DNA of 22,688 bases from a virus, in the IMG/VR virus record IMGVR_UViG_3300036801_000051, positions 1 through 22,688 of that record; one strand, written 5' to 3'. Within the stretch, counting starts at the first letter, position 1. Each line of letters begins with the position of its first letter. A program made the position numbers and the translations under genes. Below are positions 1,887-22,463 of this stretch, one piece after another. A model generated the notes under the pieces. That model had not been told where the DNA came from, ran no database searches, and saw nothing but the letters and a program-made list of their open reading frames with translations.

Positions 1887-2087
1887 TTATTTGGAAAGAA
1901 CCTTGTCTGCTTTGCTATCGATATCGTGAAGCATTTTGAGAGAGATATGACCTTTGTCATATTGCTGTTGAGCGCGCGCCTTAGCGTTTCCGGCATGACT
2001 TCTATCCGGAATTGGGTACGAACGATCTGGGCCAGCAAATTCACCTTTAGGAAGTTTGTTTCGTTGCTCGGTTGTAAGCTTTGACAT
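1887..2087 (-). CDS. Conserved small phage protein of the RSYPIPDRSHAGNA type (66 aa)
   Basis: The protein carries the block FAGPDRSYPIPDRSHAGNAK (about residues 17-36). I recognise this as the core of a common small phage/prophage protein pattern (F..P..RSYPI.D.SHA.NA), followed by a charged helical half ending in KADKVL. Its molecular role is not known to me. The frame is open up to an ATG ten codons further upstream, but a strong GGAGG (2094-2098) sits 6 bases before the ATG at 2085-2087, so I use the shorter start MSKLTTEQRNK. It is the first gene of the leftward unit that leads through three more small genes to terL, about 35 bases downstream of a good sigma70-like promoter. Confidence 0.8.
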   Translation of the reverse strand: MSKLTTEQRNKLPKGEFAGPDRSYPIPDRSHAGNAKARAQQQYDKGHISLKMLHDIDSKADKVLSK

Positions 2088-2093
2088 GCCAGT

Positions 2094-2098
2094 CCTCC
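2094..2098 (-). promoter_or_regulatory. Strong Shine-Dalgarno site that fixes the start of the 66-aa gene
   Basis: The minus strand reads GGAGG here, 6 bases before the ATG at 2085-2087. The ATG further upstream in the same frame has no comparable site, so this decides the start. Confidence 0.75.
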
Positions 2099-2128
2099 AA
2101 GATCCATTCGATAACAAAGTGTGTAAAT

Positions 2129-2156
2129 AGTATAAACAAACGCATTTCTATCTCAA
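2129..2156 (-). promoter_or_regulatory. Sigma70-like promoter for the small-gene/terL unit
   Basis: On the minus strand the -35 is TTGAGA (2151-2156, 5 of 6 to consensus) and the -10 is TATACT (2129-2134, 5 of 6), with a 16-base spacer. Transcription would begin near 2122, about 35 bases before the 66-residue gene. It gives terL and its small genes a transcript separate from the structural genes. Read by eye; no start site has been measured. Confidence 0.6.
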
Positions 2157-2187
2157 GCATTATTAAACCCGGTAATATATTTTATCG

Positions 2188-2210
2188 TCCCTATTGTAAA
2201 TATATAGGGA
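2188..2210. repeat. Perfect 7-bp inverted repeat, operator-like, in the divergent control region
   Basis: TCCCTAT (2188-2194) and ATAGGGA (2204-2210) are exact inverted copies separated by 9 bases. The repeat lies between the leftward promoter at 2129-2156 and the plus-strand gene at 2251, and spans the -35 of the proposed plus-strand promoter. That placement suits a repressor operator. No T-run follows the right arm (rightward) or left arm (leftward), so it is not a terminator. The binding protein, if any, is not in this window. Confidence 0.5.
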
Positions 2211-2221
2211 AGTGATACAAA
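2194..2221 (+). promoter_or_regulatory. Candidate promoter of the signal-peptide gene
   Basis: The -35 is TTGTAA (2194-2199, 4 of 6) and the -10 is TACAAA (2216-2221), with a 16-base spacer and a TG one base before the -10 (extended -10 form). Transcription would begin near 2228, leaving a leader of about 22 bases with AAGGA at 2240-2244. Matches are moderate and found by eye. Confidence 0.38.
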
Positions 2222-2250
2222 TGACATCCATAAAGAGATAAGGATTTTCA

Positions 2251-2460
2251 ATGAGAATATTAATCAGTTTTATCGCAATACTCCTCGCCTCGAATGTTAT
2301 GGCTGACGATTTAAGATGTTACAGTTTTGGTACACAAATCTATCATGGTAACGTCCATAACGTCATTCTCACCGAAGAAGGTTTTTATATTTTCATCGAA
2401 AATGGAACAAAGAAAACAGTCATCCTTGCGGGCGATTGTGTCCTGAAAATTAACGATTAA
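2251..2460 (+). CDS. Small secreted or periplasmic protein with signal peptide (69 aa), moron-like
   Basis: The N-terminus is a classic Sec signal: MR, then a hydrophobic core (ILISFIAILLAS), then NVMA before DDLRCYSF, giving a likely cleavage after Ala19 and a mature chain of 50 residues. The predicted cut has no Cys at +1, so it is not a lipoprotein. The mature part has exactly two Cys (near residues 24 and 63), which could form a disulfide in the periplasm, and alternates beta-type residues (YHGNVHNVIL, GFYIFIENG, KKTVILAG). I do not recognise a family. AAGGA at 2240-2244 supports the start. It runs against all neighbouring genes, and its stop overlaps the stop of the tail fibre gene by a few bases. 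It has its own promoter candidate and operator-like repeat. Superinfection exclusion, receptor masking or a lysis role are possible but unproven. Confidence 0.75.
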   Translation: MRILISFIAILLASNVMADDLRCYSFGTQIYHGNVHNVILTEEGFYIFIENGTKKTVILAGDCVLKIND

Positions 2461-5400
2461 AGCTCAGCGTCCCAAGTGATGAATGCGCTTGAATTCTTAG
2501 ATGCAAGCCAGGATGCAAATCCCGCCGTCACAGAGCTATTTGTAACGTTAATAAAACCGCCATTTCCTGATCCAGTACCACTGATTGCAGAAATTGAGAC
2601 AGTTGTGCCGTTTAATGCCATGTTCCAATTTGAATTAGTTCCGTCATATCCAAATGTAGGAACGATCCGCATCGGCTTGAAATAATCAACCGCGATTGAT
2701 CCAGTTGCAGTATTTGATCCCGCTGCAAGTAAAATGCCGTTATTGCCAGCCGATGTTCTTTTAATGAAATAACGCTGGCATAAATTCAATTCATCATTGA
2801 AAGTTCGCACTCTAAACGGCGTTGCATTAGAACCTGGCTCACATTGGATTAATGAAAATTCAGAGACGTTTGAATTGCTAGATAATCCGTTAACTTGATT
2901 TGAAGTAGCAAAGAAATTTCCAGTATTCCAAGCATTAGCCGTTGTTTGAAAGGTGGAACCCCCTGCCAATGTAAATACAAGATTCAAACCCAATCCAGTC
3001 GTATAATCCCATGTTCCAGCGCTTGGGGAGGCCGAAACCGTGATAGATGCAAACTCCCAAGTATTTGTAGTGGTTTGTGTGTATTCTGCAACATAACTCC
3101 TATCCTTGCCGCTATTCCTAAATCCTACGCAATAAGTACCTGTAACGGTATGCTTATGCCAGAAAGATAAAGTAAACGTTCGTTGGGCGATTTGCGCGAA
3201 ATCATATCCTTCCATTCGGTATTCATGGGTATAAAAATCTCCGGCTGCAATTGAAGAATCTGCTGTTGTTACTGCGGTTTTTAAACAATTCGTTGTGAAA
3301 ATACCTGCTTGACTTTCTGTTGGCGCATCAGCCGTTTTAGTTATTGTTACAACGCCAGTTCCAACGAAAGTATAAATGAATCTATCGGCGGTATATGTAT
3401 TATTAGCGGCTGCAACATATGAAGTTCCACGTTGCCAAGGATTAGTATCAAAATTTCCGCCTATTATTAAATTATTTGCATTATTCAAAGGTTGTTGTAA
3501 TAAAGCCTGAGTTTGAGAAACCGTCAAATCAATAGGTGCTGCAGTGCTTCCAGTGTTATTTCCTTTTATTGTGTTAGCAGCCATCTGAGAAAGCATGGTG
3601 TTTGTTACAAAATTAGAAGTTTGGATTGAAGGAACACCGCTACCATTAGTTGAAAGTAAACCATTATTTGCGGTCGCTAATGCTCCAACCGTTGTACCAG
3701 TTGGATTTGTTGTGTAATAAGCAATTGAATTTAATGCACCACTGCTTACAATTCCGCTTGCTGCAGGAGCAGATGATATCCAGTTTGTTCCATTAGACGT
3801 TAAAACATCTCCTGAAGACCCAGGAACAGCGTAAGTTTCTGTTGAAGCCACCCAATTCGTGCCGTCTGAAACAATTATCTTTCTAGTAGTTGCAGAAGAG
3901 CCAACCGGTAATGTTGGAACAGAATAAACATTGTTTGTTCCATCACTATAAATTATCTTTCCAACGCTTCCGCTTGTTGTGGGATAAGTTGGAGTTGTCC
4001 ATATCGGAATCGCGCCATTAACGGACGCTAATAACTTTCCTGAAACGCCTGGATTTGCTAAGAAAGAGGGAATACTACTTGCATCTGTTACTAATACACC
4101 GCCCGCAGTCGTACTTAATCCTGCAACCGTATTTGTAGAACTTGAATATAAAAGTTGATTTGCGGTCGTTGTAACAGGATATGTGGCGGTTGACCAAGCA
4201 AGTCCGGTTGCAGCTCCCGAACTAACTTGAAGAATTTGTCCATTTGTCATTCCTACTGCTAATCTGACATTCGCCGTTGAATAACCAATCAAATCGCCTT
4301 TGGTTGTAAGTGGACTGATATTATTAAAAGCTGTCGTCATGTTGGCGACATCACTTAAATTATTAGCTTTTAAAAGAACCGAAGTTGCAGAGAATGTGAA
4401 TTGACTAAAAAGAATCGCATCTACGCCTACAGATGAAACACTTGCCGTTTCAATGAATGAAGTTCCAGCGTAAGAAGTTCCGTTATTGATTATGACTAAA
4501 TCGCCTGGTTGAATCTCAGACGGTTGATCGTAATCCGTAGCTCTAGTCAGAATCCATGCTACTGCGCCACTACCTTGATTGGTTAAAGTATAGATACCAT
4601 TTTGTAAAGTTGAAGATTGATTCCAGACTAATATACGAGCATTCGTAGGAGGTGTAGTTCCGTCCGTCATGAACTGAGCTAACGCGCCGGAATTTGTTAA
4701 TGTCGCTCCAATTCCTGACGCACCATTCAAATAAGTAGCGGTAAGATTTGCAGTTGTTGCTGCATAACAAGCTGGCTGAATAGTCAAACCAGTCGCTACC
4801 GAATCAACATAATTCTTAGTTGCAGCATCTTGTGGATTAGTTGGGTCTAATAGACTTGTAATTTTATGAGAACCCATATTTATGACACCAGTCATTGTTC
4901 CGCCAGATAAAGCCAAATAATTAGCTAATTGCGCATTTAGATAATTAATCGTTACCGCATCTTGAGCCGATGACGGATCCGTCAAATTTGTTATTTTATG
5001 ATTTCCCATATTGATTGCACCTTGCATGGTGCCACCTATAAGAGGAAGAAATGCGCCGCTAATTGAATCAACATATGCTTTTGTTGCTGCATCTTGCGTA
5101 TTAGTAGGATCAGTCACATTATTAATTTGGTGACTGCCCATATCCAATGCTTGAGATTGAGCGCCAAGTTTTGTGATGTTTAGCTGAACGGCTGAAGGTA
5201 GAGAATTTGATAAAGAAGGAACACCGCCTAAATCAGTCACTAATACTGCATTAATAACGGGTCCTAATACGGAATAACTGCTAGGCGCTGTTGTATAAAG
5301 TAACTGATTGGCAGACGTAGAAAGACCGGCAATGCTATCTAATGCACTACTCCAGGCTTCAACATCAACGCCGATTTGTAATCCAAGGTTAATTCTAGCC

Positions 5401-6149
5401 TGTGGTACGTTCGTTAAATCAGAGAGATTGTTTGCTGTTTTTAAGAAGTATCCAGTCGATACTTGCGTTGGAAGCGCGGTTACTCCAGTAATATTTCCCC
5501 AAAAAGTATTGGCATTCATTGGCGCGAATGAAATTGTGCCAGCAAGATCAATTGGGCCGCCTGTTAATCCCAATCCTGTATCAATTTGAGTAACTGTTCC
5601 ACCGCCTATTATGTCCACAATATCAATCGCTATAATCGCCGTATGAGAAGAATTCATCCCCCAAAATTGATCCGCTTTCAATAATGGCAAAATGTTGTCT
5701 CTGGTTGGATACATGGAGTCGTTGTTTATTTCCGCAGAATAATTGTAGCGCGGGCCAATCACTTGATTGACAAGTTCAGCCTGTTGATCGACTAAAGTCA
5801 GAATCCCGAAATCATTGTTGAGCATGGAAGGGATAAAATTTGTATTTGTATAAAGGTTGGTTCTATCGGCTGGCGTTTGACGAGTGATAGTGATGATATC
5901 GCCCCCGCTCGCCGGTGTGACAAGCGTCACTCGAACATCTTGACCGCCGCCTATAAATGTAACGGTATACTGAGTGATACTTAAAATCTGCGTGACATCG
6001 TTTGCAGGATCGCCAGCCGGCGTCTGATAAACTACAACGTCAGAGGAATAGTTTGCTGTCCAGTTTGTATCAAATACCGATTGGCTCGCAGAGGCTATAA
6101 TTTGCGTCCATGGAAGCGTATTTTGTATAGGTACTTGAGACGAGAACAT
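2457..6149 (-). CDS. Tail fibre with T7 gp17-like base and C-terminal receptor-binding region (1230 aa)
   Basis: This is the host-recognition fibre. Residues 1 to about 150 follow the layout of the T7 fibre attachment domain: beta-rich, with YTVTFIGGGQDVRVTL, then ITITRQTPADRTNLY, then a helix with LVDQQAELVNQV, which in T7 anchors the fibre to the tail. The shaft contains common phage fibre motifs: VTQIDTGLGLTGGP, two NNLSD segments, TTKGDLIGYS, repeated ANQLLY units, and three 44-residue repeats (about 334-450). A domain at about 455-575 (NGIYTLTNQG, LTRATDYDQP) also occurs in many fibres. From about residue 893, IGGNFDTNPWQRGTSY opens a beta-rich C-terminal region, with the LCQRYF motif near 1120, which I infer to bind the receptor. 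Like other phage fibres it is probably a trimer. No dedicated fibre chaperone follows; the next gene is on the opposite strand. Confidence 0.93.
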   Translation of the reverse strand: MFSSQVPIQNTLPWTQIIASASQSVFDTNWTANYSSDVVVYQTPAGDPANDVTQILSITQYTVTFIGGGQDVRVTLVTPASGGDIITITRQTPADRTNLYTNTNFIPSMLNNDFGILTLVDQQAELVNQVIGPRYNYSAEINNDSMYPTRDNILPLLKADQFWGMNSSHTAIIAIDIVDIIGGGTVTQIDTGLGLTGGPIDLAGTISFAPMNANTFWGNITGVTALPTQVSTGYFLKTANNLSDLTNVPQARINLGLQIGVDVEAWSSALDSIAGLSTSANQLLYTTAPSSYSVLGPVINAVLVTDLGGVPSLSNSLPSAVQLNITKLGAQSQALDMGSHQINNVTDPTNTQDAATKAYVDSISGAFLPLIGGTMQGAINMGNHKITNLTDPSSAQDAVTINYLNAQLANYLALSGGTMTGVINMGSHKITSLLDPTNPQDAATKNYVDSVATGLTIQPACYAATTANLTATYLNGASGIGATLTNSGALAQFMTDGTTPPTNARILVWNQSSTLQNGIYTLTNQGSGAVAWILTRATDYDQPSEIQPGDLVIINNGTSYAGTSFIETASVSSVGVDAILFSQFTFSATSVLLKANNLSDVANMTTAFNNISPLTTKGDLIGYSTANVRLAVGMTNGQILQVSSGAATGLAWSTATYPVTTTANQLLYSSSTNTVAGLSTTAGGVLVTDASSIPSFLANPGVSGKLLASVNGAIPIWTTPTYPTTSGSVGKIIYSDGTNNVYSVPTLPVGSSATTRKIIVSDGTNWVASTETYAVPGSSGDVLTSNGTNWISSAPAASGIVSSGALNSIAYYTTNPTGTTVGALATANNGLLSTNGSGVPSIQTSNFVTNTMLSQMAANTIKGNNTGSTAAPIDLTVSQTQALLQQPLNNANNLIIGGNFDTNPWQRGTSYVAAANNTYTADRFIYTFVGTGVVTITKTADAPTESQAGIFTTNCLKTAVTTADSSIAAGDFYTHEYRMEGYDFAQIAQRTFTLSFWHKHTVTGTYCVGFRNSGKDRSYVAEYTQTTTNTWEFASITVSASPSAGTWDYTTGLGLNLVFTLAGGSTFQTTANAWNTGNFFATSNQVNGLSSNSNVSEFSLIQCEPGSNATPFRVRTFNDELNLCQRYFIKRTSAGNNGILLAAGSNTATGSIAVDYFKPMRIVPTFGYDGTNSNWNMALNGTTVSISAISGTGSGNGGFINVTNSSVTAGFASWLASKNSSAFITWDAEL
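4800..5150 (-). repeat. Three tandem 44-residue shaft repeats in the tail fibre
   Basis: The motif MG.H.I..L.DP...QDA.T..Y.. occurs three times, with its Met at residues 337, 381 and 425: an exact period of 44 residues (132 bases). The three cores are MGSHQINNVTDPTNTQDAAT, MGNHKITNLTDPSSAQDAVT and MGSHKITSLLDPTNPQDAAT. The links between copies contain LIGGTM and LSGGTM. This is a known trimeric shaft motif of phage fibres. The DNA of the copies has diverged, so the repeat is older than any recent duplication. Confidence 0.85.
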
Positions 6150-21972: not shown

Positions 21973-22000
21973 TTTATAGGGAAAACTTTTCAATGTTCAA
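21973..22000 (-). promoter_or_regulatory. Candidate promoter of the leftward structural operon
   Basis: On the minus strand TTGAAC (21995-22000, 4 of 6) and TATAAA (21973-21978, 5 of 6) are 16 bases apart. Transcription would begin near 21966, about 36 bases before terS. The -35 overlaps the first codons of the divergent gene, so the two promoters would interfere. Found by eye, moderate matches. Confidence 0.38.
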
Positions 22001-22463
22001 TGTGTATCAATTCCGCGAGCTTATCATAAAACCTGCTTTGAATGATTTGGTTTTGTATTCACCTGAAGCTGAGGAATTGCTTGTCTTCACTTGCGCCGTA
22101 GAATCGTTGGGAGGAAGTTACTTAAAACAGGTAAAAGGGCCCGCTCTTGGTATCTATCAAATGGAGCCTAGGACTTATAATGATATCTGGCAAAACTTTA
22201 TCATGAAGCATTCAAGTCTTATGATGAAGCTTCATTCCTCTTTCAATCTTGTTTTCATTCCACCGGAAGATCGACTTGTTTACGATTTGAGATTCGCTAC
22301 TGCCATTGCAAGAATCCACTATGAACGTTTTAAGGAAAAGATTCCTGACGCAAAAGATATAGAAGGGATTTGGGAATACTACAAAAAATATTACAACACT
22401 TCAGAGGGTGCCGCTTCCAAGGAATTCTCTATTTTGAAGTATCAGGATTTTGTGAAAGATTAA
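21993..22463 (+). CDS. Lysozyme/transglycosylase-like peptidoglycan hydrolase (156 aa)
   Basis: The segment CAVESLGGSYLKQVKGPALG and IYQMEPRTYNDIW (residues 34-66) has the layout of lysozyme-fold lytic transglycosylases: a catalytic Glu candidate (Glu37 in VESLGG) followed about 16 residues later by G-I-Y-Q (53-56), which lines the substrate groove. I recognise the GPALG..QMEP.T..DIW version from phage proteins of this size. There is no signal peptide or membrane helix, so as an endolysin it would need a holin, which I do not see here; a virion-borne lysin is the other option. The gene is on the opposite strand to the structural genes, divergent from terS, with AGGGA about 10 bases before the ATG. 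Its 3' end overlaps the end of the convergent 22429-22680 gene by 35 bases. Confidence 0.65.
   Translation: MFNVYQFRELIIKPALNDLVLYSPEAEELLVFTCAVESLGGSYLKQVKGPALGIYQMEPRTYNDIWQNFIMKHSSLMMKLHSSFNLVFIPPEDRLVYDLRFATAIARIHYERFKEKIPDAKDIEGIWEYYKKYYNTSEGAASKEFSILKYQDFVKD

What the first reader, a model, noticed from the sequence alone, without database searches (positions are those of the whole stretch)
2157..2460. Antisense signal-peptide gene with its own control: a moron candidate
The 69-residue product has a clear Sec signal and a 50-residue mature chain with two Cys, and no structural role is suggested by position. It is inserted between the fibre gene and the terL unit on the opposite strand, with a promoter candidate, an operator-like repeat and a stop that abuts the fibre stop. 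These traits are typical of genes expressed outside the lytic assembly programme, such as superinfection-exclusion or envelope-modifying factors. Placement beside the receptor-binding gene is suggestive.
Basis: partly seen in the sequence, partly recalled or inferred. Interest (0 to 1): 0.58.

Follow-up and report, generated by a model that had tools for sequence, protein, structure and literature searches.

The report
Small exported protein beside phage fibre
A podovirus fragment carries, on the strand opposite its tail-fibre gene, a real small gene for an exported protein related to little-studied phage lipoproteins; its likeliest job is to stop other phages from entering the same cell, but that is still a guess.

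Summary
The ORF (2251-2460, +, 69 aa) is a real gene. Five relatives, only 26-36% identical, sit antisense between fibre and terL in related podovirus contigs whose TerL is 70-85% identical. All six have a SPase I-type signal, no lipobox, and a Cys pair in the mature chain. Profile comparison links the mature domain to an unnamed phage lipoprotein family (CTDA...CYSGG...GDC) found in Vibrio, Klebsiella, Caulobacter and other phages and in some bacterial genomes. AlphaFold2 gives a five-stranded barrel; a lipoprotein relative resembles YgdR/DUF903 lipoproteins. Known exclusion genes (T1 cor, Rtp rtp45, T5 llp) also lie near tail receptor genes on the opposite strand, and the fibre tips beside the six genes are unrelated in all 15 pairs. 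I favour a periplasmic superinfection-exclusion factor (about 0.45) that works like Llp/Cor but is not a member of those families: no lipid anchor, no sequence match in the mature domain. A spanin role is unlikely.

The parts
2251..2460 (+). the gene: 69-aa exported small protein
2251..2304 (+). signal peptide, residues 1-18, V-M-A before the likely cleavage site (rule recalled, no program)
   Evidence: sequence; no lipobox found
2305..2457 (+). mature 51-residue domain, five predicted strands
2317..2319 (+). codon of C23, first core cysteine
2437..2439 (+). codon of C63, second core cysteine
2240..2244 (+). ribosome-binding site AAGGA
   Evidence: sequence
2188..2210 (.).
2194..2221 (+). weak promoter-like site; not above chance
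2457..6149 (-). tail-fibre gene whose stop codon overlaps the small gene's stop codon
1..1236 (-). terL, cut by the window end

Best explanation
An accessory phage gene for a small protein that is exported by Sec, cleaved by signal peptidase I and probably held by a C23-C63 disulfide in a five-stranded SH3-like barrel. It is a lipid-less branch of a phage lipoprotein family whose predicted fold is that of YgdR/DUF903 lipoproteins. Most likely it collects in the periplasm of the infected cell and, from the inner face of the outer membrane, blocks or reshapes the receptor used by the fibre tip encoded next to it, so that further phages cannot enter and progeny are not lost on debris: a superinfection-exclusion factor that works like T5 Llp, T1 Cor and Rtp Rtp45. 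Shown by computation: gene, relatives, slot, Cys pair, predicted fold, absence of a lipobox. Inferred: expression, export, the disulfide itself, the target, exclusion.
For: Six members in one slot and on one strand relative to terL; signal without lipobox in 6 of 6; core cysteines both present in 16, both absent in 4 and single in 0 of 20 aligned members; mature-domain profile match to phage lipoproteins (probability 97.5, 48 columns); confident all-beta model. Known exclusion genes have a like layout: T1 cor faces the tail-tip cluster on the other strand, rtp45 likewise, T5 llp lies beside oad on the opposite strand. Llp also has a Cys11-Cys58 disulphide that constrains its termini (PMC9586334, passages). 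The gene abuts or nearly abuts the fibre 3' end in five of six, and the last 150 residues of the six fibre frames are unrelated (19-29% in 15 of 15 pairs), as expected of a receptor module. Exclusion proteins of BF23 and T5 do the same job with no homology (PMC4728585, passages), so lack of homology does not speak against function.
Against: No lipid anchor, unlike Llp, Cor and Rtp45. No mature-domain match to T1 Cor or T5 Llp, and a poor one to Rtp45 (probability 34). Lipoprotein relatives lie among nucleotide-metabolism, exonuclease, AAA and small unknown genes in larger phages, not beside fibres, and occur in bacterial genomes. T5 llp is divergent from oad, not convergent. Patchy cargo at a recombination spot would give the same pattern without exclusion. 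Host and receptor are unknown.
Confidence: 0.45

Rival explanations
1. General envelope modulator: a phage copy of a YgdR-type small envelope protein that tunes host envelope physiology or stress during infection, with no role in exclusion.
For: Lipoprotein relative resembles YgdR/DUF903 structures; relatives in bacterial genomes, some without obvious phage genes around; relatives among early or middle type genes of other phages.
Against: Does not explain the fixed place beside unrelated fibre tips; three genomes that carry the lipoprotein have no PF06004 match.
Confidence: 0.25
2. Periplasmic inhibitor of an incoming virion enzyme (works like T4 Spackle): it stops the tail or internal-protein peptidoglycan enzyme of superinfecting phages.
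For: Soluble, signal-bearing, disulfide-type small protein, as Spackle is (PMC7677548, passages).
Against: Predicted all-beta, whereas Spackle is a helical bundle; close link to the fibre tip points to a receptor rather than an internal enzyme.
Confidence: 0.1
3. Lysis accessory: a spanin-like or cell-wall-binding lysis protein.
For: A distant homologue is annotated 'putative o-spanin' next to 'putative i-spanin'; the fibre-terL interval holds lysis genes in T7 (recalled); a neighbouring gene's DNA resembles a gene beside a lysis cassette in phage Pollock.
Against: No lipobox in 6 of 6 close members and no second membrane segment in the model, so it cannot bridge the membranes alone; that annotated homologue lies among unknown and DNA-modification genes.
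Confidence: 0.1
4. Chance ORF with no product.
For: No match for the single protein at significant scores; an ATG ORF this long arises in 17 of 1000 shuffles.
Against: Five syntenic relatives share signal, Cys pair and motif, and the profile matches a large lipoprotein family.
Confidence: 0.02

Closest known systems
Unnamed phage lipoprotein family, e.g. Stenotrophomonas phage Suzuki CPT_Suzuki_030 (QZI85603.1) and Vibrio phage 1.170.O NVP1170O_164 (AUR92277.1)
   Same: Mature core [IV]xCYSxGxxIYxG ... GDC and Cys pair; profile match of 48 columns
   Different: They are lipoproteins with a CTDA lipobox and a linker; the window branch is signal-peptidase-I type without lipobox; their genes are not beside fibres
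T5 Llp, T1 Cor, Rtp Rtp45 (superinfection-exclusion lipoproteins)
   Same: Size, export, gene near the tail receptor gene on the opposite strand, Cys pair; possible way of working
   Different: Lipid-anchored; no mature-domain sequence match
YgdR/YgdI, DUF903 (PF06004) bacterial lipoproteins
   Same: Predicted fold of the lipoprotein relative, Z 6.5-7.1; weak rows 2k57 and 3bdu for the window model, Z 4.2 and 4.0, tied with unrelated SH3-like chains
   Different: No PF06004 match by sequence; no lipobox; Cys pair as a rule not claimed for DUF903 (not tested)
T4 Spackle
   Same: Soluble, signal-bearing, disulfide-containing periplasmic exclusion protein (PMC7677548, passages)
   Different: Helical bundle; the window protein is predicted all-beta

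Membership tests
Phage exclusion lipoproteins (Llp, Cor, Rtp45) | N-terminal lipobox cysteine | tested here: not met
   none in 6 of 6 close members
Phage exclusion lipoproteins (Llp, Cor, Rtp45) | Mature-domain sequence homology | tested here: not met
   Cor and Llp align in the signal region only; Rtp45 probability 34
Phage exclusion lipoproteins (Llp, Cor, Rtp45) | Gene beside the receptor-recognition gene on the other strand | tested here: met
   window; relatives; T1, Rtp and T5 layouts
Phage exclusion lipoproteins (Llp, Cor, Rtp45) | Blocks the phage receptor | not testable with these tools
   needs an experiment
CTDA/CYSGG phage lipoproteins | Homologous mature core | tested here: met
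   hhalign probability 97.5 over 48 mature-domain columns, 97.7
CTDA/CYSGG phage lipoproteins | CTDA-type lipobox | tested here: not met
DUF903 (YgdR/YgdI) | PF06004 profile match | tested here: not met
   not among Pfam hits up to E 1 for six members nor up to E 0.1 for five lipoproteins
DUF903 (YgdR/YgdI) | SH3-like lipoprotein fold | tested here: inconclusive
   lipoprotein relative Z 6.5-7.1; window model Z 4.2 and 4.0, tied with unrelated rows
o-spanin | Lipid attachment to the outer membrane | tested here: not met
   no lipobox
Moron (autonomous inserted gene) | Own promoter and terminator | tested here: inconclusive
   promoter-like site at chance level; no close terminator-like site
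Moron (autonomous inserted gene) | Present in some and absent from other close relatives at one slot | tested here: met
   5 of 47 records; 3 of 38 loci in the slot scan
T4 Spackle | Helical bundle fold | tested here: not met
   predicted mature chain is all beta; Spackle fold from PMC7677548

The most novel reading that the evidence does not exclude
Podoviruses of this clade carry a fibre-linked exclusion module: a lipid-less, soluble periplasmic receptor blocker on a YgdR-type SH3-like barrel, a fold not known to me for exclusion proteins, that is swapped or diverges with the fibre tip beside it; and the wide, unnamed phage lipoprotein family it comes from is an unrecognised class of exclusion or envelope-takeover proteins in phages of many kinds, giant ones included.
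Probability: 0.22. Interest if true: 0.65.

Novelty: new variant of a known kind. Interest (0 to 1): 0.42.

Why it matters
The exclusion proteins met in the papers read here (Llp, Cor, Rtp45, Spackle) come from coliphages. A homologous family with a bacterial-lipoprotein-like fold, spread over many phages and with a soluble branch tied to the fibre tip, would give a sequence handle for finding exclusion proteins, and through them receptors, in uncultured phages. As it stands the function is inferred; the solid gain is that an orphan ORF is a real gene and has a place in a recognisable family.

Tried and rejected
Single-protein searches led nowhere: no viral-contig relative by tblastn, nothing significant in Pfam, PHROGs or phage records. 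Family libraries with all six members gave only weak, inconsistent rows. PDB sequence profiles gave no related chain. A4 against genome contigs found no relative. I looked for a promoter motif shared by upstream regions of the window and five relatives; the best were 18-mers with 3-4 mismatches, which I took as chance. Membership in Llp, Cor or Rtp45 was rejected. Llp is not among the rows shown in the structure searches, which excludes nothing. DUF903 in three bacterial genomes that carry the lipoprotein: 0 of 3, with the E. coli control positive.

Rows dropped: the G027 hit (E 0.003, 22 residues, a stop inside) as chance; the weak hit in MT836089, where the frame lies inside a larger gene of another kind; other weak hits (Microbacterium, Dickeya, Erwinia, Listeria) were not followed. 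Nine loci that duplicate contigs already in the set were left out of the slot scan; some pairs left in (L010/L011, L013/L014, L020/L021) gave identical coordinates, so its 38 loci are not 38 independent phages.

Caution on statistics: hhalign E-values here are for one pair; Cor reached E 1e-5 on the signal region alone. The lipoproteins were in the alignment used to fold the window protein, so the lipoprotein matches in the viral structure library are not independent of the sequence result.

Full report
What is there. The window is a 22,688-base linear IMG/VR record, a fragment of a podovirus with fibre, tail, head and portal-type genes on the minus strand (gene kinds partly by my reading). 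At 2251-2460 on the plus strand lies a 69-aa ATG ORF with AAGGA six bases before the start. It runs against the fibre gene (2457-6149, minus) and shares TTAA at 2457-2460 with it. The product has a hydrophobic N-terminus ending in V-M-A, then 51 residues with C23 and C63.

Is it a gene? Alone it has no significant match. I fetched relatives of the phage by TerL and by the capsid protein and looked in the same interval. L004, L015 and L016 and two further records, read as L110/L111 and again as L211/L212, hold a divergent version on the same strand relative to terL. In one search, 5 of 47 relative records match at E <= 1.3e-12; a sixth, at E 0.003 with a stop inside, I treat as chance. In a six-frame search of 193 sequences (192 loci, with duplicates, and the window) the next frame after the six proteins is at E 0.12. 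Identity to the window protein is 26-36%, while TerL identity is 70-85%. A frame that keeps its signal and Cys pair at such divergence is a gene under selection, not a chance ORF.

Family. Members of the set gave weak tblastn hits (E 0.2 to 6 for the five used) in named phages, whose proteins at those places turned out to be lipoproteins with the same core. Profile comparison of the six (A2) with these five (A5) aligns 48 columns of the mature domain at probability 97.5 (97.7 with the three-member A4). One lipoprotein as query matches 47 phage records, itself included: Klebsiella, Vibrio, Caulobacter, Tenacibaculum, Stenotrophomonas and others; further members are in viral contigs (9 loci) and bacterial genomes (7 loci). 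None of the five has a convincing Pfam, PHROGs or NCBIfam match. In 20 aligned members the core cysteines are both present in 16, both absent in 4 and never single, which is what a disulfide predicts. The six close members have no lipobox; of the 14 lipoproteins my pattern finds the lipobox Cys in 12, and the other two (L204, L206) have the same Cys-Thr-Asp-Ala after a residue that the pattern does not allow.

Fold. AlphaFold2 with the 20-row alignment A8 gives a confident all-beta mature domain, strands 19-25, 28-40, 45-50, 56-60 and 62-66, pLDDT about 90-95 in residues 21-60. Against the PDB it resembles SH3-like barrels without a clear winner. The lipoprotein L201, folded from A9, is clearer: its seven best rows (2rd1, 2k57, 3fif, 3bdu, 5cai, 2ra2, 2rb6; Z 6.5-7.1, rmsd 1.9-2.3) have titles that name YgdR, DUF903 or a putative lipoprotein, or only a structural-genomics target, and the next row is at Z 5.0. 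That all seven are one family is partly recalled. A Z below 8 may be a common arrangement, so I claim a likely fold, not descent.

What it may do. Three known exclusion genes were read in their records: T1 cor is on the minus strand, facing the tail-tip cluster; rtp45 is on the minus strand after the J-like tail gene; T5 llp is beside oad on the opposite strand, divergent from it. The papers describe Llp as periplasmic, adjacent to the receptor-binding gene and with a Cys11-Cys58 disulphide (PMC9586334, passages), Rtp45 as acting on LptDE from the periplasm (PMC12685063, passages), Cor as Llp-like (PMC13164509, passages), and the receptor-binding and llp genes as one functional module in T5-like phages, with BF23 and T5 Llp not homologous (PMC4728585, passages). 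In the window clade the small gene overlaps the fibre frame by 4 nt in three of six, follows it directly in one, lies 100 nt away in L004 and 369 nt away in L015; the last 150 fibre residues are 19-29% identical in all 15 pairs, that is, unrelated, whereas the first 150 residues of the same frames are 49-64% identical among window, L004, L015 and L016 (the L211 and L212 fibre frames are probably cut by the locus ends, so their first residues are not comparable). So the gene travels with, or diverges beside, a variable tip. That fits an exclusion partner of the fibre; a cargo gene at a recombination spot would look the same. The interval is such a spot: L006 and L118 carry a tyrosine integrase there (2 of 26 records searched).

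Against it. Mature-domain homology to Llp and Cor was not found and that to Rtp45 is poor, and the lipid anchor is missing. Relatives in larger phages sit among nucleotide-metabolism, exonuclease, AAA and small unknown genes, and some are in bacterial genomes. I therefore file it as: works like an exclusion factor (about 0.45), not a member of Llp/Cor, a lipid-less relative of the CTDA lipoproteins.

Novelty. Searches for DUF903/YgdR with and without phage terms and for exclusion in podoviruses with signal peptides and tail fibres (no paper) showed no description of this family in the listings (titles and starts of abstracts) that I saw; the library lacks most subscription journals.

Noticed in passing
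L006:5025-5984 and L118:1998-2984: Tyrosine integrase genes just before terL in two close relatives of this podovirus; 2 of 26 records searched have one, so the clade may hold temperate members.
   Followed up: partly
window 2129-2156 (-): Best sigma-70-like match of the first 6 kb (TTGAGA-16-TATACT, 10 of 12) on the minus strand, just before the gene at 1887-2117; promoter-like sites in that region are no more than in shuffles (14 against a mean of 15.0).
   Followed up: no
window 1887-2117 (-): Matches phrog_16160; its DNA resembles a gene between tail spike and lysis cassette in the N4-like phage Pollock, a surprising match between different phage kinds.
   Followed up: partly
window 21993-22463 (+): A second plus-strand gene, matching phrog_3108 of unknown function, divergent from a weakly terminase-small-subunit-like gene.
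   Followed up: no
L213-L219: The lipoprotein family also occurs in bacterial genomes, among them cyanobacteria; in L219 the frame is broken, with the homologous end in another frame.
   Followed up: partly
L203, L204, L205, L207: Branch of the lipoprotein family that has lost both core cysteines; L205 and L207 have another Cys two residues later.
   Followed up: partly
L041:3587-3730 (-) and L050:1225-1389 (-): Very short Cys-rich ORFs with signal-like starts in relatives of the phage, unlike the family studied here.
   Followed up: no
L005:5368-5997 and L022:5456-6001: ORFs of 209 and 181 aa in the fibre-terL interval that look to me like homing endonucleases; no Pfam hit at E <= 0.001.
   Followed up: partly
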